A program made the translations under genes and the position numbers. Shown in pieces: positions 5,922 through 21,706 of a stretch of DNA of 64,000 nucleotides. This DNA comes from Saprospiraceae bacterium. Lineage in GTDB: Bacteria; Bacteroidota; Bacteroidia; Chitinophagales; Saprospiraceae. Numbering within the stretch: the first letter of the stretch is position 1; each line of letters opens with the position of its first letter. The stretch is taken from positions 1-64,000 of the forward strand of contig JALSGS010000008.1 of assembly GCA_026982695.1 (NCBI GenBank). The letters are read 5' to 3'. The notes under the pieces are model-generated. The model was not told the DNA's origin. It made no database searches and saw only the letters and a list, made by a program, of their open reading frames with translations.

Positions 5922-7181
5922 ATGCGTGCTCGAGTACATGTAGACTCTGAAATAGGCCCTTTACGGCGCGTCATTGTGCATCGCCCTGATGGGGGCATTG
6001 CCCGCATCTCACCCCGGCGTGCTGGAGAGTTATTATTCGATGATATTGTGCATTTGCCCCAGATGCAGTCTGAGCACGATGTGTTTCGGCAGGTATTAGA
6101 GGCTTTTGTGGGCCCCAATCAAGTGCTCGAAACCCAACAGTTATTGAGCGAAGCTATCGAGGCGGATGAAGCGACGAAGGCTTGGATGATTGAGCGAGTG
6201 ATTGACTATGAAGAACTACCTTCTGCATATAAACCTCTGCTTGAAGCCCTCGACGCACAGGAGTTAGCCGAGACGCTTATCACGGGTTATCACAAAGAGG
6301 AAGACTTAATTTTGTTTGATCCCATTCCCAATTTCATCTTCACGCGTGACATCGCTGCTGTAGTTAATGATCACGTGATTATCACTCGGGCAGCTAAAGA
6401 GGCGCGCTTTCGCGAGAACTTTCTCACTCGACTCATCTTTTGGTCGCATCCTATATTTAGTGGTCTACGCGAAAAGGGCCGCTTGATCAATCTCAATCAC
6501 GTGGATGAGTTTCCACCGAGTCGGCGCGGGGAGGTGGTGAGCATTGAAGGGGGTGATATCATGATCCTCAACCGGGATTATTTACTTATTGGTTGTTCGG
6601 AGCGCACCAATGCACATGCCATTCATTCGGTAGCGCGTGTGTTGTTTGAGAAAGAGGTCGTTAAGAACGTGGTACAAGTCAATATACCGAAGGATCGCGC
6701 CTACATGCATTTGGATACCATTTTTACGCAGATCCACAGGCACCATGTAGTAGCATTTAAGCCTATCGTATTAGATGGGTTGAGCTCAAATGTGGAAGTG
6801 CTGCGCTTCAATGGCACGTCGAGTTTTTACCATTCGATCCGCGACTTTCTGGTTAATGAGATCAATCCCAATATGGAGTTTATTTTGAGTGGCAACGGTG
6901 TTTCTCCGTATCAGGAGCGCGAACAATGGACGGATGGCTGCAATTTGGTAGCGGTAAAGCCGGGAGTGGCTATTACTTATGACCGCAATCCTTATACTGA
7001 AGAAGCTTTTGAAGCTGCGGGTTATCGAATTCTCCATGCTGTGGACTTTTTGGCTCAATCGGTGGCAGGCCAGATCGACCCTCAAAAGCTGGAGATGACT
7101 ATCATCACGCTGCCTTCGAACGAGCTATCGCGTGCGCGGGGTGGATCGCATTGTATGACTTGCCCCATAGAGCGTTTGTAG
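5922..7181 (+). CDS. arcA: Arginine deiminase family protein
   Basis: A 419-residue cytosolic enzyme of the guanidino-group modifying fold, predicted to hydrolyse arginine to citrulline and ammonia. Family landmarks are visible: FTRD (about residues 139-142), EGGD (about 208-211), MHLDT (about 256-260) supplying the catalytic His, and the C-terminal GGSHCMTCP, where the Cys is the nucleophile. Length is typical. It follows the small secreted protein gene by 5 bases. No ornithine carbamoyltransferase, carbamate kinase or arginine/ornithine antiporter lies beside it, so a complete arginine deiminase operon is not present here. A related amidinohydrolase with a different substrate cannot be excluded. 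Confidence 0.85.
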   Translation: MRARVHVDSEIGPLRRVIVHRPDGGIARISPRRAGELLFDDIVHLPQMQSEHDVFRQVLEAFVGPNQVLETQQLLSEAIEADEATKAWMIERVIDYEELPSAYKPLLEALDAQELAETLITGYHKEEDLILFDPIPNFIFTRDIAAVVNDHVIITRAAKEARFRENFLTRLIFWSHPIFSGLREKGRLINLNHVDEFPPSRRGEVVSIEGGDIMILNRDYLLIGCSERTNAHAIHSVARVLFEKEVVKNVVQVNIPKDRAYMHLDTIFTQIHRHHVVAFKPIVLDGLSSNVEVLRFNGTSSFYHSIRDFLVNEINPNMEFILSGNGVSPYQEREQWTDGCNLVAVKPGVAITYDRNPYTEEAFEAAGYRILHAVDFLAQSVAGQIDPQKLEMTIITLPSNELSRARGGSHCMTCPIERL

Positions 7182-7210
7182 CGACGGCAGCAGGTAGAGC
7201 AAATGAGTTT

Positions 7211-11471: not shown

Positions 11472-11488
11472 GCCTCTGGCTCAGAGGC
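11472..11488 (+). repeat. Hairpin directly after gap
   Basis: GCCTCTG, 3-base loop, CAGAGGC: a perfect 7-bp stem 19 bases after the gap stop, with only a weak T run behind it. It may protect the message 3' end or act with the stronger terminator just downstream. Confidence 0.55.
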
Positions 11489-11644: not shown

Positions 11645-13711
11645 ATGAAAACACCACCTATACATACGGAAGCGACGCTGCAGAACTTTATCCAGGCACG
11701 GGGAGAAGAGCTCATCGATGCATGGCAATTGGCCCAAGAAGTACTGTTGTTGCTTCCGGATCAGCGGGGAGAATGGAGTAGGGCGCTTGGAGGAGATTTG
11801 CCCACACGTGGGCGCCGCCGTCAGCCCGTAACTGCGTGGGCAGAGGAAGTACGTGCATGGGCTCGCAGTAGAAATGTACCACTTCTAGATGCAGCCTTGT
11901 TTGTGTTGGCTTTGGGCCAGATAGAGGCGGCCTTAGGTGAGTGGATGAAGAAGGTGGGCTTAGAAGAGTATTTAATTCGATTAGTGGGCATACCACTGGA
12001 GTCGGATAGTCCGCCTCATTCAGTGCTACAGACACAGCAAGCACAGCAACTATCTGTTGAGGATAAGCGTACAGGCCAGCCTCCATTGGAAGATGCTGAG
12101 GAACAGGTATTATCTCGAATAGATTATCCGGTATTTCATTCGGATAGGCCCACTGTGCAAGATCACTTGTTTCGGAAGGGATATGCACGAGCTTGGGCCT
12201 TGTGGTTGCGCCGCATTTGGGAACAAGATAATAGCCTGCCTGCTTCGGCTACAACGGATCAGTGGCCACAAAAGAGTTTCATGGTGCATTTGGATGGGCC
12301 GTGGGGGTCGGGCAAGACTTCGCTGCTACTGCAACTGGAAAGGCAACTGGCAGCGTGTCCTGTGCGGATAGGTGGTGGTCATCGCTCTTGGTTAGTGGTG
12401 TGGTTCAATGGTTGGCGACATCGGCATTTACAGCCTGTTTGGTGGCCACTGTGGAATCGGACTTATCGCAGCTTGTTGGCTCATCAGGCTGGCTGGCGCA
12501 AGTGGATGTTTTGGATTAAGGAGTGGTGGTGGCGCTTGCGCGTCAATGGCTTTTTTCGCACGCCTGTAGTCATTGGGCTTTTTGCTTTGGGACTTATAGG
12601 TCTTGGAGTCGTGCTATTGAGCAATGTGGCCCCTACCCAGGCATTGGCCACCCTTTCGGAGCAGGCGGGAAGCATTTTGGCTTTTTTAGGCTTGGCGGGT
12701 TCGATAGGCTCAGCAGCGCTCAACATGTTACGGGCACTATTTTCAGGCCAGGCGGCCGAGCGATTCGTGCGGGTAGGAGCTGATCCTATGGAACAGATTC
12801 GTCGGCATTTTTGCGATATGGTGACTTTTGTCAAAAGGCCCATCTTGGTATGTATCGACGATCTGGATCGTTGCCAGCCGAACTATGTAGTGGGCTTGCT
12901 CGAGCACATACAGACGCTTTTTTCGCATGCGGCGGTGCAGTATGTGGTGGCTGCTGATCGTCGTTGGCTTTACGAGTGTTTTGAGCAAGAATATGCGGCG
13001 TTCAAGCATTGCATTAGGGAGCCGGGCCGGCCTACGGGATATCTCTTTTTGGAAAAGATCTTTCAGATGGGGTTGGTGGTGCCATCGATGAATGACTTTC
13101 AGCGGCAGGTGTTTTTGGAGATATTGTATGGGCAGGGAGATAGCGTTTCAACTGATGAGCTGGAGCAATTGGCTGCACGCGTGGAGGCCGAATTTGAGGG
13201 GGTGACTTCCACTGAAGCGCTGATTACTCAGTTGGAAAAGGTGCCTGACCAGGCCAATATGCTTATACAACAGCTACGCCGACAAGCAGCGGTGCAACAA
13301 TTGGCCAGGCAGGAGGTGCACACTTCGATCGAGCATTTTTTGATGCCTTTTGCTTCATTGCTTGAGCCGAATCCTCGTGCAATCAAACGCTTGGTCAATG
13401 CTTATAGCGTCGGGCTGGCATTGGCATTGCTGTCCGACGAATCGGTGCTGGCTGATGTGATGCGCCGCAAGCGCTTTGCACTTTGGACAATTTTGCAGTT
13501 GCGCTGGCCCTTGCTGGCCAATTATCTGCGCGAAGCGCCTGAAACAATTGATCAATGGCGCGATGCACAACAAGTACAACCTTCTTGGCCAGAAGAAGTA
13601 CGTGTGCTACTGGCCGACAAGGAGGTGCAGCGCGTGCTCAATGGTGAGGCGGATGAGGTTGATGTGACCTTGACTACCGATTCCGTATGCCTGTTTGATA
13701 CCATTGGTTGA
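11645..13711 (+). CDS. KAP-family P-loop NTPase with membrane insertion
   Basis: A 688-residue protein of the KAP family (named after Kidins220/ARMS and PifA). Walker A is GPWGSGKT at 218-225. Walker B is ILVCIDDLDRC at 400-410, with Asp405/Asp406 and the family-typical Asp408. Between them lie two hydrophobic segments (about 302-325 and 340-361), the inserted transmembrane hairpin expected of KAP NTPases, so the enzyme should sit on the inner membrane. FNGWRH fits the conserved W-rich KAP segment. Residues 1-200 form an N-terminal region that I cannot assign; the C-terminal third is helical. The ATG at 11645 is used rather than a TTG at 11624. Bacterial KAP proteins such as F-plasmid PifA exclude phages, but many have no known role. 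It is monocistronic between gap and metH. Confidence 0.85.
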   Translation: MKTPPIHTEATLQNFIQARGEELIDAWQLAQEVLLLLPDQRGEWSRALGGDLPTRGRRRQPVTAWAEEVRAWARSRNVPLLDAALFVLALGQIEAALGEWMKKVGLEEYLIRLVGIPLESDSPPHSVLQTQQAQQLSVEDKRTGQPPLEDAEEQVLSRIDYPVFHSDRPTVQDHLFRKGYARAWALWLRRIWEQDNSLPASATTDQWPQKSFMVHLDGPWGSGKTSLLLQLERQLAACPVRIGGGHRSWLVVWFNGWRHRHLQPVWWPLWNRTYRSLLAHQAGWRKWMFWIKEWWWRLRVNGFFRTPVVIGLFALGLIGLGVVLLSNVAPTQALATLSEQAGSILAFLGLAGSIGSAALNMLRALFSGQAAERFVRVGADPMEQIRRHFCDMVTFVKRPILVCIDDLDRCQPNYVVGLLEHIQTLFSHAAVQYVVAADRRWLYECFEQEYAAFKHCIREPGRPTGYLFLEKIFQMGLVVPSMNDFQRQVFLEILYGQGDSVSTDELEQLAARVEAEFEGVTSTEALITQLEKVPDQANMLIQQLRRQAAVQQLARQEVHTSIEHFLMPFASLLEPNPRAIKRLVNAYSVGLALALLSDESVLADVMRRKRFALWTILQLRWPLLANYLREAPETIDQWRDAQQVQPSWPEEVRVLLADKEVQRVLNGEADEVDVTLTTDSVCLFDTIG

Positions 13712-13768: not shown

Positions 13769-13887
13769 TGTTTCGTTTGCACTGACAATCGTTCATTTTT
13801 CTATTAACCGAAAGCTCGTCACTATTGGCAGCGGCGCTAAGGCATTTTCTTGACTATCATTTGCCAGGGCAAAAACTACATAGCATT

Positions 13888-16800
13888 ATGGCTGATCGCC
13901 TACACACACTTGACCAAATCGTACAGCGGCGCATTTTGGTGCTCGATGGAGCGATGGGATCGCTTATTCAGCAGTACAAGCTTGCAGAAGAGGATTATCG
14001 GGCAGAGCGTTTTGCACAATGGCCACATCCCGTAAAGGGCAATAATGATTTGCTGAGCATCACGTGTCCTGATATCATAGAAGAAATTCACCACAAGTAT
14101 TTAGAAGCTGGTGCCGATATTATTGAGACCAACACGTTTAATGCCAACCGCATCTCTCAAGCTGATTACGGCATGGAGTCGTTGGCCTATGAGCTCAACC
14201 TAGCAGCTGCCCAAGCGGCACGTCGGGCAGCCGATGCATGGACAGCGCGTACCCCTGACAAGCCGCGCTTTGTAGCTGGTGCTATTGGCCCGACCAATAA
14301 GACCCTTTCGCTTTCGCCCGATGTAAATGATCCTGGCTATCGGGAGGTGACTTTCGACCAAGTGCAGGAAGCTTATTACGAACAGGTATGTGGTTTGGTG
14401 GATGGCGGTGTAGATATATTGCTCATCGAGACGATTTTCGATACGCTCAATGCCAAAGCGGCCATTTTTGCCATTGAGCGTTTGTTCGAAGCACGAGCTA
14501 TGCGCTTGCCCGTCATGATTTCGGGTACGATCACAGATGCTAGTGGGCGTACGTTAAGTGGGCAGACGGTAGAGGCCTTCTGGATCTCGGTGATGCACGC
14601 ACGGCCCTTTAGTGTGGGGCTGAATTGTGCGCTGGGTGCCAAGGAGATGCGGCCTCATGTGGAGGCACTGTCGCAAATTGCCGATACTTGGGTACACGCC
14701 TATCCCAATGCGGGTTTGCCCAACGAGTTTGGCGGTTATGACCAGACGCCTGAGGAAATGCGCCGATACATGCGCGATTTTGCACAGAGTGGATTTGTCA
14801 ACATCGTGGGTGGGTGTTGTGGTACTACGCCGGCACATATTCGTCTGATGGCTGAAGCTGTATCGGGTTTGCCGCCACGGCAGCGCAAGCAGCGTCCACA
14901 TTACACCATGCTCAGTGGTTTGGAACCACTTATCATTCGACCCGAGAGCAATTTTGTCAATATAGGCGAGCGCACCAACGTGACGGGCTCTCGCCGTTTT
15001 GCACGCCTGATTCGAGAAGGCAATTACGAAGCGGCACTGGAGGTGGCGCGCCAGCAGGTAGAGGGAGGTGCCCAGATTTTGGATGTGAATATGGATGAAG
15101 GCATGCTTGACAGTGCAGCCGCCATGACCACCTTCCTCAAACTGCTGATGGGTGAGCCCGATATTGCTCGCTTACCCATTATGATCGACTCGTCGAAGTG
15201 GGAAGTGATTGAGGCTGGTCTGAAGTGCGTGCAGGGCAAGAGCATTGTCAATTCTATTTCGCTCAAAGAGGGTGAGGCATCGTTTCTTGAGCAGGCGCGT
15301 TTAGCACGCAAGTATGGTGCGGCGGTAGTCGTCATGGCTTTTGACGAGGAGGGGCAGGCCGACACCGTGGACCGCAAGGTAGATATATGCATACGGGCGT
15401 ACCAATTGCTCACTGAGCAGGTGGGCTTTCCGCCTGAAGATATCATTTTCGACCCCAATATTTTTGCGGTAGCCACTGGTATTGAGGCCCATAACGACTA
15501 TGCCATAGCGTTTATCGAGGCTACGCGGCGCATCAAGCAGTTGTGCCCGCATGCCAAGGTGAGTGGGGGAGTGAGCAACTTGTCGTTCAGCTTTCGAGGC
15601 AATAATGTAGTGCGCGAAGCGATGCATTCGGCTTTCTTGTACCACGCTATTCAAGCAGGTATGGACATGGGCATTGTCAATGCGGGGATGATCGAAGTGT
15701 ATGAAGATATTCCCAGGGAGCTACTCGAGTTGGTAGAAGACGTGTTGTTTAACCGCCGGCCCGATGCTACGGAGCGCTTAGTAGTGTATGCCGAACGCAT
15801 CAAGGAGCAAGGTGGTGGCAAAAAGCGCGCGCGCGACTTGAGCTGGCGCCAGCAGCCCGTAGAAAAGCGACTCGAATATGCATTGATCAAAGGCATTGAC
15901 GAATACATCGAGGTAGATGTAGAAGAAGCGCGCCAGAAGTTGGCCTCTCCTTTGCAAGTCATCGAGGGCCCTTTGATGGATGGCATGAATGTGGTAGGAG
16001 ATTTGTTTGGCAGTGGCAAGATGTTTTTGCCACAAGTGGTAAAAAGTGCACGCGTAATGAAAAAAGCAGTGGCATGGCTTACGCCCTACATCGAAGCGGA
16101 GAAAGCCGCTGCTGGCGATACGCGGCCTAAGGGCAAGGTACTGTTGGCCACCGTCAAGGGCGATGTGCACGACATAGGCAAAAACATCGTGGGTGTGGTG
16201 CTGGGCTGCAACAACTACGAAATAGTGGATTTAGGTGTCATGGTGCCTGCCGAAAAAATTCTGGAAGCGGTGCGTGTACACAAAGTGGACATCATTGGCT
16301 TGAGTGGGCTGATCACGCCTTCGCTCGACGAGATGGTACATGTAGCCCGAGAAATGGAGCGCCAGGGCTTCTCCTTGCCCTTGCTCATTGGGGGAGCGAC
16401 GACCAGTAAAGCGCATACTGCTGTAAAGATCGATCCAGAATACTCTGGTCCAGTGATACACGTACTCGATGCTTCGCGCAGTGTGACTGTAGTGAGCTCA
16501 TTGCTGGGTGAAGATGAGGAGGCGCGTCAGCGCTTCTTAGAAGCTAATGCGGCTGATTTGGAGCGCGTGCGCCACGAGCGTCGCGCACGCCAGTCGGTGC
16601 GTACCTATTTGAACTTGGCCCAGGCGCGTGCCAATCGTTTTCAACCCGATTGGTCCAGCTATGAACCACCCAAGCCGCTGAAGCCGGGCATCCACGTGTT
16701 TGCGTCTTATAGTCTGGAAGAGTTAGTACCTTATATCGACTGGACGCCCTTCTTTCTCAGTTGGGAAATGCGCGGTCGCTATCCGCAAATTCTCGACAGT

Positions 16801-17610
16801 AAAAAATATGGGGCACAGGCACGCCAATTATTCGATGATGCGCAGGAGTTGTTGAGCCGCATTGTTTCGGAAGGTTGGCTACAAGCTAAGGCTGTATTGG
16901 GCTTGTTCCCTGCCCAGTCAGTAGATGTAGATGATGTGCAGCTCTATGCCGATGAGGCCCGTACCGAACCGCTGGCTCGCCTTCATTTTTTGCGGCAGCA
17001 GGTAAAGAAAACGGCAGGCTCCCCCAATCTCTGCTTGGCCGATTTTGTCGCTCCTGTTGACAGTGGCAAGGCCGATTATCTGGGGGCATTTGCGCTAACG
17101 ACGGGCATAGGTATTGAAGCACACGTGCGGCGTTTTGAGCAAGCACATGATGATTATCGTGCCCTTTTGCTCAAAGCGCTGGCCGATCGCCTCGCAGAGG
17201 CATTTGCCGAAAGGCTGCATCAGCGCGTGCGACAGGAATTTTGGGGCTATGCCCCCGACGAGCAACTGAGCAATGAAGAGCTGATAACCGAAAAATATCG
17301 GGGTATCCGGCCTGCACCTGGCTATCCGGCTTGTCCGGACCATACCGAAAAGGCTACACTGTGGCGTTTGCTCGATGTAGCGCACAATGCGCAAATTCGG
17401 CTTACCGAACACTTTGCCATGTGGCCAGCTGCCTCGGTGAGTGGTTGGTATTTTGCTCACCCGCAATCGAAATACTTTGCTGTGAAGGGGATAGGGCCTG
17501 ATCAAGTAGCTGATTACGCACGGCGTAAAGGCATGCCAGTGGAGGAGGTGGAGCGCTGGCTTTCACCTGTGTTGCACTACGAGCCCACACAAGTGGTTAA
17601 GCAGCGTTGA
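13888..17610 (+). CDS. metH: Cobalamin-dependent methionine synthase
   Basis: A 1240-residue modular enzyme that moves the methyl group of 5-methyltetrahydrofolate to homocysteine via methylcobalamin. All four modules are visible: homocysteine-binding barrel with zinc Cys residues in NCALG and GGCCGTTP; pterin-binding domain (starting around [16 protein letters not shown]); cobalamin domain with DVHDIGKN at about 759, where the His is the lower cobalt ligand; and the reactivation domain with [15 protein letters not shown] at about 1138. Length is full. The ATG at 13888 opens with [12 protein letters not shown] as in relatives; an in-frame TTG at 13825 adds 21 unlikely residues. It leads a plus-strand cluster with a phosphatase gene and rsgA. 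Confidence 0.96.
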
Positions 17611-17697
17611 GTGCCTGTGGCTCGATTATCAAAGAAGATGACTGTACCTTGTGGTATGGGGGTAGGGCTAATCTGTCACCAGAAAACCGAAAGCCGC

Positions 17698-18165
17698 ATG
17701 AAAATTCTCATGGTTTGTTTAGGCAACATCTGTCGTTCGCCTTTAGCCGAAGGCATTCTCAAGGCGAAAGCCGCAGCCTATGGCCTGGACTGGCAGGTGG
17801 ATTCTGCAGGTACGAGCTCTTGGCATGTAGGAGAATTGCCCGACAAGCGTAGTATCGCCACAGCTCGCCAACACGGTATTGACATTACGGACCAACGCGC
17901 TCGGCAGTTGCGCCCTGCCGATCTGGATACCTATGATCTGATCTTGGCCATGGATCGCAACAATTTGCGCGATATATTGCGCTTGGCGCAAAATGAACGG
18001 CAGCGCCAGAAGGTACGCCTTGTCATGGAGTTTGTCGATCCCAATCAGCCTTCGGATGTGCCCGATCCATATTGGGATGACGACGGCTTTGAGCAGGTGT
18101 ACCAAATGCTGGAGCAGGCTGCTGAGGGTATCATTGCAGCATATGGTGCCGTACCCAAAACGTAA
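17698..18165 (+). CDS. Low-molecular-weight protein-tyrosine phosphatase
   Basis: A 155-residue cytosolic phosphatase. The P-loop CLGNICRSP lies at residues 7-15 (MKILMVCLGNICRSPLAEG), with Cys7 as nucleophile and Arg13 in the CX5R loop. The general-acid Asp lies in DVPDPYWDD. The start at 17698 places the P-loop at the usual position; an upstream extension from 17611 is not family-like. It follows metH by about 90 bases on the same strand. Substrates are unknown; members act on tyrosine-phosphorylated proteins or, in some cases, arsenate. Confidence 0.9.
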   Translation: MKILMVCLGNICRSPLAEGILKAKAAAYGLDWQVDSAGTSSWHVGELPDKRSIATARQHGIDITDQRARQLRPADLDTYDLILAMDRNNLRDILRLAQNERQRQKVRLVMEFVDPNQPSDVPDPYWDDDGFEQVYQMLEQAAEGIIAAYGAVPKT

Positions 18166-18222
18166 GTGATTGCTTGTTTGCTGCGTGTGTGGCAAATGGC
18201 GTACAATTAAAGTTGAAAGATT

Positions 18223-19167
18223 TTGGAAAAGGGAATTGTAGTCAAATCCACAGGCAGTTGGTACGACGTGCGTTTGGCCGATGGCCAACGCCTGGCCTGC
18301 CGCATTCGGGGCAAGTTTCGTTTGGGCAAGATGAAGTTGACCAACCCTGTGGCTGTAGGCGACGAGGTGATGGTAGTGCGTGAAGCCGATGGCAAGGGCC
18401 TCATCAAACAGATCTTGTCGCGGCGCAACTACGTGGCACGACAGAGCCCGCGCAAGCGCACTGAACTGCACCTCTTGGCTGCCAATATTGATCAGGCCGT
18501 ACTGATCGTGACGGTGAAATACCCCAATCTCAAGCAGGGATTTATCGATCGCTTTTTGTTGATGACTGAGCCATTCGATATTCCCACTATTATCGTGTTC
18601 AACAAGGTCGATCTGTACGACGAAGGCGACATGGCTGTGTTTGCCTATTTGCACGACATTTATACAAGCATAGGATATCAGGTACTACTCACTTCAGCTA
18701 CACAACAACGCGGTACGGATGCATTTGCTGAGGTACTTAAGGACAAAATGACGCTGCTGAGTGGCCAGTCAGGGGTAGGTAAAAGTTCCTTGGTCAATGC
18801 CATTCAGCCACATTTGCATTTGCGCACGGGCGAATTGTCGGGCTATACGGGCAAGGGTAAGCATACGACAACTTTTGCAGAAATGTTCGAGTTGGATTTT
18901 GGCGGTTTTATTATCGATACACCTGGGATCAAGACACTGTCTTTTAACTATTTAGATCCATTGGATGTAGCACACAACTTCCGCGAATTTTTTGCCCTTT
19001 CGGAAAGCTGCCGATTTGGTGGCAAATGCCTGCATCGCGATGAACCGGGTTGTGCAGTCAAAGAAGGCGTGGAGTTGGGCGTCGTCAGTGAACTGCGCTA
19101 TTTCAATTATTTGGCCATCCTCGATGAAATAGCGGAACAAAAGCACTGGGAACGCCCAAAAGTATAG
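18223..19167 (+). CDS. rsgA: Ribosome small-subunit biogenesis GTPase RsgA
   Basis: A 314-residue circularly permuted GTPase that checks late 30S subunit assembly. The order is N-terminal OB fold (about 1-75), G4 NKVD near residue 127, then G1 GQSGVGKSS from about 182, G3 DTPG, and a C-terminal zinc knuckle (CRFGGKCLHRDEPGC). The start is TTG: it opens the expected N-terminus EKGIVVKSTGSWYDV, and the next in-frame ATG would delete the OB fold. It lies 58 bases after the phosphatase gene and ends 9 bases from a convergent TPR gene. Confidence 0.94.
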   Translation: MEKGIVVKSTGSWYDVRLADGQRLACRIRGKFRLGKMKLTNPVAVGDEVMVVREADGKGLIKQILSRRNYVARQSPRKRTELHLLAANIDQAVLIVTVKYPNLKQGFIDRFLLMTEPFDIPTIIVFNKVDLYDEGDMAVFAYLHDIYTSIGYQVLLTSATQQRGTDAFAEVLKDKMTLLSGQSGVGKSSLVNAIQPHLHLRTGELSGYTGKGKHTTTFAEMFELDFGGFIIDTPGIKTLSFNYLDPLDVAHNFREFFALSESCRFGGKCLHRDEPGCAVKEGVELGVVSELRYFNYLAILDEIAEQKHWERPKV

Positions 19168-20893: not shown

Positions 20894-21706
20894 TTACTTT
20901 TTAGTAGCTCGTTTGCGGGTTTTTCGCTTGGGGGCCACTTCTTCTTTTTGTGGTGCAGGAGGCTCTTCCCCTACATAAAGGATGTTGTCATCTACTAGGA
21001 TGCGCCCACAGTGCTCGCAGGTAATGATTTCGGTGCGCAAGGTGAGCTCTAGTTGTGTCTGGGGCGGGATGGTATTGTGGCAGCCTCCACATGCATCTCG
21101 TTCTACCATGACTACGGCCAAACCATTTCGGTAGTTAGCTCGGATTTTGTCGTAGGAACGCAGCCAGCGCGGGTCGATTTCTTTGCGAGCTTTTTCCGAT
21201 TGGCGTTTGAGTTTCTTTTCCTCCTTTTCGTTCTTGGCAGTGACTTCTTCGAGTTCTTTTTGTTTTACCTCTAAGTCGTGTTTTTTAGCCTCCAGGCGTT
21301 GTTTGGTGTTTTCGAGCAGCTCTTGACGCGCTTCGAGTTGCTGTGTGGCATCTCGTATGCGCTTTTCTGCCAATTGGATTTCGAGGCGTTGTAGCTCGAT
21401 TTCTTTCATCAGGGCCTCGTATTCCCGGTTGTTTTTTACTTCATCGAGTTGCTTGTTATAGCGCTCGATAAGGGCCTCTGCTTCTTTGATCTTAGAGCGA
21501 TGCATTGAGATACTGTCTTCGATGTCTTCGATTTGGCGCTCTAAGCGTTGGATGCGCGTTTTGAGACCAGAGATTTCGTCTTCCAGGTCTTTGACTTCGA
21601 TAGGCAGTTCGCCTTTAAGAATTTGGATTTCGTCGAGTTTGGAGTCGATGAGCTGGAGCTGATAGAGCGCTTTGAGCTTTTCCGCAATGGTTTTTTCCTT
21701 GGCCAT
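20894..21706 (-). CDS. Coiled-coil protein with C4-type zinc ribbon
   Basis: A 270-residue cytosolic protein. Residues ~10-185 are a long charged coiled coil. Then comes a zinc ribbon with CGGC (in ACGGCHNTIPPQ) and CEHC (in ITCEHCGRILV), and a Lys/Arg-rich tail. This is the architecture of the widespread CT398/zf-RING_7 family. Its role is not settled; nucleic-acid or flagellar/secretion functions have been suggested for relatives. It starts 32 bases after the Nif3-like gene, a pairing that recurs in many bacteria. Confidence 0.88.
   Translation of the reverse strand: MAKEKTIAEKLKALYQLQLIDSKLDEIQILKGELPIEVKDLEDEISGLKTRIQRLERQIEDIEDSISMHRSKIKEAEALIERYNKQLDEVKNNREYEALMKEIELQRLEIQLAEKRIRDATQQLEARQELLENTKQRLEAKKHDLEVKQKELEEVTAKNEKEEKKLKRQSEKARKEIDPRWLRSYDKIRANYRNGLAVVMVERDACGGCHNTIPPQTQLELTLRTEIITCEHCGRILVDDNILYVGEEPPAPQKEEVAPKRKTRKRATKK

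What the first reader, a model, noticed from the sequence alone, without database searches (positions are those of the whole stretch)
11645..13711. Stand-alone KAP NTPase with an unassigned N-terminal domain
The sequence shows Walker A (218-225), Walker B (400-410) and two membrane helices inserted between them, the KAP layout. Known bacterial KAP protein PifA excludes phages, and the family is thought to include defence NTPases. This one is monocistronic, between two housekeeping genes (gap and metH), and its first ~200 residues match no domain I can name. It could be a single-gene membrane defence or signalling NTPase, or a household protein with no defence role.
Basis: partly seen in the sequence, partly recalled or inferred. 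Interest (0 to 1): 0.6.

Follow-up and report, generated by a model that had tools for sequence, protein, structure and literature searches.

The report
Membrane KAP ATPase with swappable N-terminus
A bacterium carries a lone gene for a membrane-embedded ATPase of a family that includes anti-phage proteins; its front end is an unrecognised, fast-changing domain, and relatives in other bacteria carry front ends that look unrelated in the same place, which fits an infection sensor but does not prove one.

Summary
Window 11645-13711 encodes a 688-residue KAP NTPase with Walker A at 218-225, Walker B at 400-410 and two predicted membrane helices between them. Residues 1-160 match no Pfam family above cut-off. 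Residues 430-688 are no mystery: the rest of the KAP domain plus a conserved tail.

The gene belongs to a rare KAP clade whose N-termini fall into six groups without detectable mutual similarity, among them EVE-like (once behind a peptidoglycan-binding domain) and macro-like ones. N-termini are less conserved than the core in 15 of 15 within-lineage pairs. Presence is patchy: the own genome and its one genus mate among 80 family genomes, both beside metH; in a second family 6 of 77, five beside one gene that is present without KAP in 8 of 8 related genomes. The closest solved fold to the core is RdrA of the RADAR defence system.

Best reading: a single-gene, membrane-anchored, STAND/AAA+-like receptor NTPase with an exchangeable input domain, probably anti-phage. 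No defence island surrounds it and nothing was tested functionally, so defence is inferred. New variant of a known kind.

The parts
11645..13711 (+). KAP NTPase gene, 688 aa plus stop
11660..11992 (+). N-terminal domain, residues about 6-116, no known family; so far recognised only in L003 (same genus) and, through L003, in L103 (genome G489)
   Evidence: helical in two low-confidence models
11993..12124 (+). Low-confidence, probably disordered linker, residues 117-160
   Evidence: pLDDT under 50 in both models; disorder is inferred
12296..12319 (+). Walker A, GPWGSGKT, residues 218-225
   Evidence: W220, G221, G223, K224 invariant in 10 sequences
12566..12622 (+). Predicted membrane helix 1, residues 308-326
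   Evidence: mean hydropathy 2.67
12674..12730 (+). Predicted membrane helix 2, residues 344-362
   Evidence: mean hydropathy 1.77
12842..12874 (+). Walker B, ILVCIDDLDRC, residues 400-410
   Evidence: D405, D406, D408, R409, C410 invariant in 10 sequences
13370..13390 (+). NPRAIKR motif, residues 576-582, near the end of the KAP match (P577, R578, R582 invariant); a sensor-2-like role is recalled, not tested
11472..11488 (+). Terminator-like stem between gap and KAP (consensus match only)
   Evidence: 4 found in the region, 2.8 expected
13825..17610 (+). metH neighbour; KAP-metH-PTP-RsgA order kept in the same-genus locus L003 (gene names by reading)

Best explanation
The gene encodes a one-protein, inner-membrane receptor NTPase of the KAP family. 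Shown: KAP motifs, two predicted membrane helices between the Walker motifs, a conserved C-terminal part, and an extra N-terminal domain (helical in low-confidence models) in a position that other lineages of the clade fill with domains showing no similarity to it. Inferred: the N-terminus is the input module. It senses an infection or stress cue, or docks a sensor or effector partner. That releases ATP-dependent assembly of the STAND/AAA+-like core, as in the ring-forming RdrA. The membrane helices are brought together, the inner membrane becomes leaky or a partner is recruited, and phage growth stops together with the cell or its energy supply, in the manner recalled for PifA. In the window's genus and in f43 it is an accessory chromosomal gene kept at fixed places and often absent.
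For: KAP domain and motifs. Clade: 14 members, support 99/98; 16 members, 95/96, with PifA and two other KAPs outside. N-terminal differences: PG_binding_1 5e-17 plus EVE 23.6 bits (cut-off 23) in L105; an EVE-like stretch of L125/L126 found from L105 by BLAST (E about 2e-8); macro-like in L004 (18.3 bits, below cut-off 22); another type shared by L007 and L104 (E=5e-18). Window N-terminus against five other lineages' N-termini: z -1.2 to 0.4. Two Rhizobium leguminosarum paralogues, 98.3% identical over 810 residues, differ by an N-terminal module. Core more conserved than N-terminus in 15 of 15 within-lineage pairs (narrowest 54% against 46%). Window to L003: core 67%, N-terminus 28%, metH 86%, RsgA 89%, PTP 75%. 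Patchy: strong match in 2 of 80 own-family genomes, own one included, 6 of 77 of f43; 8 of 8 KAP-less genomes of two f43 genera have the neighbouring gene without KAP. Fold: all six Foldseek matches at E<=0.001 are RdrA; RdrA Z 17.0, 234 residues, rmsd 4.0, next family Z 13.3. Published: Tmn is a KAP defence protein (PMC11846954, passages); KAP can replace STAND NTPases in EAD systems (PMC8195603, passages). Another genome of the same family joins EAD11 to a KAP protein (27.1 bits, cut-off 26).
Against: No functional test. Among ten neighbouring proteins PADLOC gives only two marginal hits (E about 8e-6) to one of them. No match in phage records and only distant KAPs in viral contigs. Both known genus members carry it beside metH, as expected of a vertically inherited gene. 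N-terminal models are poor (mean pLDDT 49.6, no residue at 70 or more). Low N-terminal conservation can also mean weak constraint, and the compared stretch includes the linker. Lack of detectable similarity does not prove that N-termini are unrelated. The EVE hit is barely over cut-off, the macro hit below it, and the Rhizobium EVE-like stretch is not called by Pfam. The Rhizobium proteins join the clade on a long stem with a long-branch warning. RdrA's Foldseek TM-scores are low (0.19-0.25) and only a third of the model aligns. In qatABCD the KAP protein QatA is largely dispensable for defence (PMC12424860, passages), so KAP membership does not imply a defence role.
Confidence: 0.45

Rival explanations
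1. Accessory household or stress gene: a membrane NTPase that helps membrane or metabolic homeostasis in a few lineages, vertically inherited beside metH and rsgA, with a poorly constrained N-terminal region. No role in conflict.
For: Window and genus mate keep KAP-metH-PTP-RsgA; five f43 genomes keep KAP beside the same gene; no defence island, no phage match; in the closest f43 pair the KAP core diverges about as much as its neighbours (L036-L038: core 77%, neighbouring metallo-beta-lactamase-like gene 72%, NadA-like 85%).
Against: Not found in most relatives; neighbouring gene present without KAP in 8 of 8; dissimilar N-termini in different lineages; in the other f43 comparisons to L036 the KAP core (54-58%) is less conserved than that neighbour (69-74%) or NadA (80-91%).
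Confidence: 0.3
2. Adaptor-type system: the N-terminus is not the sensor but an effector-docking domain like the EADs, and the killing effector is a separate protein elsewhere in the genome carrying the same domain.
For: The EAD principle is published for NTPases including KAP (PMC8195603, passages); an EAD11-KAP fusion exists in the same family; the window N-terminus is small, terminal and helical in weak models.
Against: EADs come in multiple copies per genome (PMC8195603); the N-terminal profile A7 finds only this copy in the own genome and nothing in 246 further genomes (limited sensitivity for a short, divergent domain). No similarity of A7 to the EAD11-bearing region; no Pfam EAD match.
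Confidence: 0.15
3. The N-terminus only places or regulates the protein, and sensing is done by the KAP core or C-terminal part, as would have to be the case for PifA, whose Walker A begins at residue 53.
For: PifA of plasmid F has almost no N-terminal extension and is the KAP protein known to exclude phage (recalled).
Against: In relatives the slot holds matches to ligand-binding families (EVE, macro-like, PG_binding_1), more like input than placement.
Confidence: 0.1

Closest known systems
KAP NTPase family (PF07693; Aravind et al. 2004, recalled, paper not held)
   Same: Walker A and B, two membrane helices between them, DDLDRC Walker B, NPRxxKR region
   Different: Belongs to a distinct clade with an added N-terminal domain
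PDC-S20 (PADLOC candidate defence model; the reading 'single-gene phage defence candidate' is recalled)
   Same: Best PADLOC hit, 55.5 bits, E=1.8e-15, best stretch 396-448
   Different: Profile of 464 positions, shorter than this protein; no curated cut-off is given, and the match may only reflect the shared KAP domain
PifA of plasmid F (phage T7 exclusion, recalled)
   Same: KAP NTPase; PADLOC PifA profile matches at 53.5 bits
   Different: No N-terminal domain (Walker A at residue 53), outside the clade on a very long branch; plasmid-borne beside pifC
Tmn (KAP NTPase defence system, PMC11846954, passages)
   Same: KAP NTPase with two membrane domains that acts against phages
   Different: No Tmn sequence was compared here; its mechanism is unknown too
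QatA of qatABCD
   Same: KAP NTPase; NCBIfam QatA aligns over 209-593
   Different: 73 bits against an equivalog cut-off of 600; neighbours are gap and metH, not qatBCD
EAD-NTPase counter-invader systems (PMC8195603)
   Same: Small domain fused N-terminally to an NTPase, KAP among them
   Different: No EAD match and no second copy found
RdrA of RADAR
   Same: Closest solved fold to residues about 165-498 (Z 17.0), ring-forming NTPase
   Different: Pairs with a deaminase (recalled); about 12% identity, about a third of the model aligned

Membership tests
KAP NTPase family | Significant match to PF07693 | tested here: met
   89.5 bits, cut-off 20
KAP NTPase family | Two membrane helices between Walker A and Walker B | tested here: met
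   Hydrophobic segments 308-326 and 344-362 between 225 and 400; the second is moderate
KAP NTPase family | NTP hydrolysis | not testable with these tools
   Catalytic motifs intact by sequence only
PifA | Groups with PifA among KAPs | tested here: not met
   PifA outside the clade (99/98, 95/96), on a very long branch, so its exact place is unsure
PifA | Excludes phage T7 | not testable with these tools
   needs a phage test
QatA / Qat system | NCBIfam equivalog score of 600 bits | tested here: not met
   73.1 bits
QatA / Qat system | Operon with qatB, qatC, qatD | tested here: not met
   Neighbours are gap, metH, PTP, RsgA; no Qat hit in ten nearby proteins at E<=1e-5
Tmn | Sequence clustering with Tmn | not tested
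   No Tmn sequence was fetched; no model of that name among the eight PADLOC hits
EAD-NTPase system | N-terminal domain matches a known EAD | tested here: inconclusive
   No Pfam EAD match; hhalign to an EAD11-bearing protein shows none; only three divergent sequences in the profile
EAD-NTPase system | Further copies of the domain in the genome | tested here: inconclusive
   Only the one copy found in the own genome, with limited sensitivity
RdrA / RADAR | Fold of the NTPase core | tested here: inconclusive
   Best fold match, Z 17.0, but other AAA+ and STAND NTPases follow at Z 10.9-13.3; a shared fold is not membership
RdrA / RADAR | Adjacent rdrB deaminase gene | tested here: not met
   Adjacent ORFs read as gap and metH and give no PADLOC hit at E<=1e-5

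The most novel reading that the evidence does not exclude
A clade of single-gene, membrane-embedded NTPase immune receptors in which one conserved KAP motor is fitted with interchangeable N-terminal input domains (EVE-like readers of modified bases, macro-like, peptidoglycan-binding, and several unnamed ones, the window's among them), so that different cues are wired to one membrane-damaging output. It would be a membrane counterpart of the modular NLR/Avs receptors.
Probability: 0.35. Interest if true: 0.65.

Novelty: new variant of a known kind. Interest (0 to 1): 0.45.

Why it matters
KAP NTPases occur in several phage-defence settings (PifA, recalled; Tmn; the Qat operon), but how they sense phage is unknown. 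A natural series of proteins with one motor and different N-termini, including two plasmid paralogues that are nearly identical apart from an N-terminal module, makes 'which part senses, which part kills' directly testable by deletion and exchange of domains in laboratory strains.

Tried and rejected
Considered and set aside. (1) N-terminus as a known household domain: best Pfam hit COX15-CtaA is noise (13.7 bits, cut-off 29.9); PDB sequence hits are noise (E 0.39 or worse). (2) DmmA-like_N at 491-539: 14.8-17.2 bits, cut-off 33, chance. (3) Membership of Qat: far under cut-off. (4) Cargo of a mobile element: no phage match; plasmid matches in 14 of 72,556 records, 24-40% identical over 11-63% of the query; viral contigs 19-34%; N-terminal profile finds nothing in viral contigs. 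Against a flat rejection: the Rhizobium proteins L125/L126, from a conjugative plasmid, fall inside the clade in the second tree, and the near-identical L127 copy lies near an IS481 transposase gene, so parts of the clade are plasmid-borne. (5) EAD identity of the N-terminus. (6) Similarity of the window N-terminus to that of L104: none. (7) Fold search for the N-terminus: not run, because no residue of the separate model reaches pLDDT 70 and the full model is worse there. (8) PDB sequence search with the core profile: best E=0.038, not credible. (9) dN/dS was not computed.

Limits and rows dropped. Gene names outside the KAP and Pfam-scanned proteins (gap, metH, PTP, RsgA, NadA, NadC, metallo-beta-lactamase-like, serine hydrolase, VOC, SnoaL, methyltransferase) rest on reading and recall, not on family searches. 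The window-L103 N-terminal link is transitive through L003 (L003-L103 E=1e-15, L003-window E=1e-9; window-L103 not found directly, z 1.9). Two weak cross-group N-terminal BLAST hits exist: L103-L105 E=0.14 and L104-L126 E=0.035. L103 is a 5,974-base contig of a bin with 7% contamination, so its host may be misassigned. Calling the L007/L104 N-terminus helical in my notes was a reading, not a prediction. In the first tree 9 of 12 candidate outgroups were dropped because my script did not read them in frame or a motif was missing; in the second, two of the remaining three plus PifA were used; both trees carry long-branch warnings, and the second names L005/L006 with L125/L126. The six-sequence phylum search had 24 of 394 genomes at E<=1e-10; I counted only those over 300 bits. 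In the phylum searches only the best 3 to 5 first-look candidates per genome were scored, so absences are 'not found'. The N-terminal search in held loci missed L003, probably because my greedy ORF choice dropped it. For the metH neighbourhood I took 20 of the 51 other genomes with a metH match, about 5 kb upstream and 3 kb downstream. For the empty-site check I took the 8 KAP-less genomes of genera g123 and g140 listed. Papers: passages only of PMC9122126 (nothing on KAP or Tmn there), PMC11846954, PMC10907252, PMC8195603, PMC12424860, PMC10853773; in the main text of PMC7641849 and PMC7159879 'KAP' had no occurrence; Aravind et al. 2004 not held. I found no paper describing this clade or an EVE-KAP fusion, by search listings 21, 55, 56, 64, 72, 73, 100 and the passages above only. 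PifA's membrane mechanism, RdrA's deaminase partner and the EVE/macro ligands are recalled.

Full report
WHAT IS THERE. The ORF at 11645-13711 encodes 688 residues. It matches KAP_NTPase at E=3e-25; Walker A is at 218, Walker B at 400, and the two strongest hydrophobic segments lie between them at 308-326 and 344-362. The AlphaFold model from six sequences has mean pLDDT 63.4: mostly 75-92 over the NTPase core and C-terminal helices, weak over the membrane hairpin, and under 50 over nearly all of residues 1-170. Residues 1-160 match no Pfam family above cut-off. Folded with its one close homologue this region gives seven predicted helices of four or more residues at mean pLDDT 49.6.

WHERE IT SITS. 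The window is the first 64,000 bases of contig C8 (95,636 bases) of a 3.84 Mb assembly with one copy of the gene. The only same-genus genome found is G001, whose contig appears to be the Saprospiraceae MAG contig WFYJ01000266.1 (same contig number, length and match; L002/L003). There the order KAP-metH-PTP-RsgA is the same, but the ORF upstream reads as a methyltransferase instead of gap. Identities to the window are metH 86%, RsgA 89%, PTP 75%, KAP 57%; within KAP, 67% in the core and 28% in the N-terminus. In 20 of 20 other family members examined neither KAP, PTP nor RsgA was found beside metH. Of ten window proteins scanned, PADLOC gives only two marginal matches (LmuB and JetC, E about 8e-6) to the protein at 20894-21706, so there is no sign of a defence island. 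On the gene itself the PADLOC hits are PDC-S20 (55.5 bits), PifA (53.5), QatA (49.8) and weaker ones.

HOW IT IS DISTRIBUTED. With a core profile of 11 sequences, the own family has matches over 600 bits in 2 of 80 genomes, the own one and its genus mate; the next best is 111 bits and 5 of 80 pass E<=1e-5. KAP domains of any kind are in 12 of 80. In the own phylum a six-sequence profile matched 24 of 394 genomes at E<=1e-10, but over 300 bits only the own genome and five others, all in one family, f43. In f43, 6 of 77 match at E<=1e-30. In the phylum of the Phycisphaeraceae relative, 1 of 294, the centre itself; in that of the Marinicaulis relative, 3 of 398 including the centre. In f43 five genomes hold KAP beside the same metallo-beta-lactamase-like gene near nadA: directly after it in four, and on its other side behind a small ORF in L035. 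All 8 KAP-less genomes of the two genera examined have the metallo-beta-lactamase-like and serine-hydrolase-like genes in that stretch without KAP; a NadA-like gene was in 7 of the 8 stretches fetched. So in f43 the gene is accessory and gained or lost without wrecking its surroundings. No match was found in 50,697 phage records. Plasmid matches to the window protein are 24-40% identical over part of it, in 14 of 72,556 records; the Rhizobium ones put in the second tree belong to the clade there.

THE N-TERMINUS IS AN EXCHANGEABLE SLOT. The cores form one clade (99/98 with 14 members; 95/96 with 16), with PifA and two or three other KAPs outside; long branches make exact joins uncertain, that of the Rhizobium proteins most of all. 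Within the clade N-termini fall into six groups by BLAST at E<=1 and by shuffling: (a) window, L003, L103; (b) the five f43 proteins; (c) EVE-like in L105 (Pfam EVE just over cut-off, behind PG_binding_1 at 5e-17) and in the Rhizobium proteins L125/L126, found from L105 (E about 2e-8) though not by Pfam; (d) a type shared by L007 and L104, with a weak hint (E=0.035) that the module prepended in L126 is related; (e) Hahella L005/L006; (f) L004, with a sub-threshold macro match. The only other cross-group hit is L103-L105 at E=0.14. The window N-terminus aligned to those of L036, L104, L105, L006 and L004 scores no better than shuffled sequence (z -1.2 to 0.4). On one Rhizobium leguminosarum plasmid two copies are 98.3% identical over 810 residues, yet one carries about 200 more residues at the N-terminus. 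In 15 of 15 within-lineage pairs the N-terminus is less conserved than the core, from 54% against 46% to 77% against 38% and 67% against 28%.

WHAT IT WORKS LIKE. Among solved structures Foldseek's six matches at E<=0.001 are all RdrA of the RADAR system, though with low whole-chain TM-scores (0.19-0.25). Re-alignment of the top chains puts RdrA first (Z 17.0, 234 residues, rmsd 4.0), then ORC/Cdc6 (13.3), BrxC (11.5), a plant NLR (11.2) and Avs3 (10.9). This places the core among AAA+/STAND-like NTPases and says nothing certain about function. Published KAP links that I read as passages: Tmn is a KAP NTPase with two membrane domains that inhibits several phages by an unknown mechanism (PMC11846954); QatA is a KAP NTPase but largely dispensable for Qat defence (PMC12424860); KAP ATPases can replace STAND NTPases in systems with EADs fused N-terminally (PMC8195603). 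Another genome of the same family has an EAD11-KAP fusion just over cut-off; by its 111 bits to the core profile it seems outside the clade, but it was not put in a tree. The window N-terminus shows no EAD similarity and no second copy, with limited sensitivity.

JUDGEMENT. Most likely the protein is a membrane-anchored receptor NTPase: N-terminal input, ATP-driven assembly, membrane output. Only the anatomy, the differing N-termini and the distribution are shown; sensing, assembly, membrane damage and phage defence are inferred. I put 0.45 on the defence-receptor reading, 0.30 on an accessory household role, 0.15 on an adaptor system with an effector elsewhere and 0.10 on a merely placing or regulating N-terminus. 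[quoted passage not shown] it is not QatA, does not group with PifA, and Tmn was not tested. Distance from known kinds: a new variant.

Noticed in passing
L125:3483-6056 and L126:3560-6736 (Rhizobium leguminosarum plasmid NZ_CP018229): Two KAP paralogues 98.3% identical over 810 residues that differ by an extra N-terminal module of about 200 residues in one of them.
   Followed up: partly
L125:877-1500 and 6557-7192; L127:5080-9133: A RelA/SpoT-domain gene lies upstream of the EVE-like KAP gene and a peptidoglycan-binding-domain gene downstream; on the related plasmid L127 a His-Xaa-Ser (hxs) cluster follows.
   Followed up: no
L127:2015-4580 (NZ_CP016290): The near-identical KAP gene is annotated as two overlapping P-loop NTPase genes, which looks like a broken copy.
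   Followed up: no
L134:4921-7425 (genome G1205, same family as the window): KAP NTPase with an N-terminal EAD11 domain, 27.1 bits against a cut-off of 26.
   Followed up: partly
L105:6326-13282 (genome G935): The EVE/PG_binding KAP gene lies among a PhoD-like phosphatase gene, an amidase/peptidoglycan-binding gene and a further gene with a weak, sub-threshold peptidoglycan-binding match.
   Followed up: no
L039:8300-9210 (f43 KAP N-terminus): Weak, sub-threshold match of an f43 N-terminus to RexA, the phage lambda sensor of the Rex system (15.6 bits, cut-off 25).
   Followed up: no
window 13825-19167: The metH-PTP-RsgA gene order is shared with the same-genus genome but was not found beside metH in 20 of 20 other family members examined.
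   Followed up: partly
window 12834-12807 and 13151-13123, minus strand: Two sigma-70-like consensus matches (10 of 12) inside the KAP gene on the opposite strand; 5 promoter-like sites found in the region, 1.8 expected. Probably of no meaning in this lineage.
   Followed up: no
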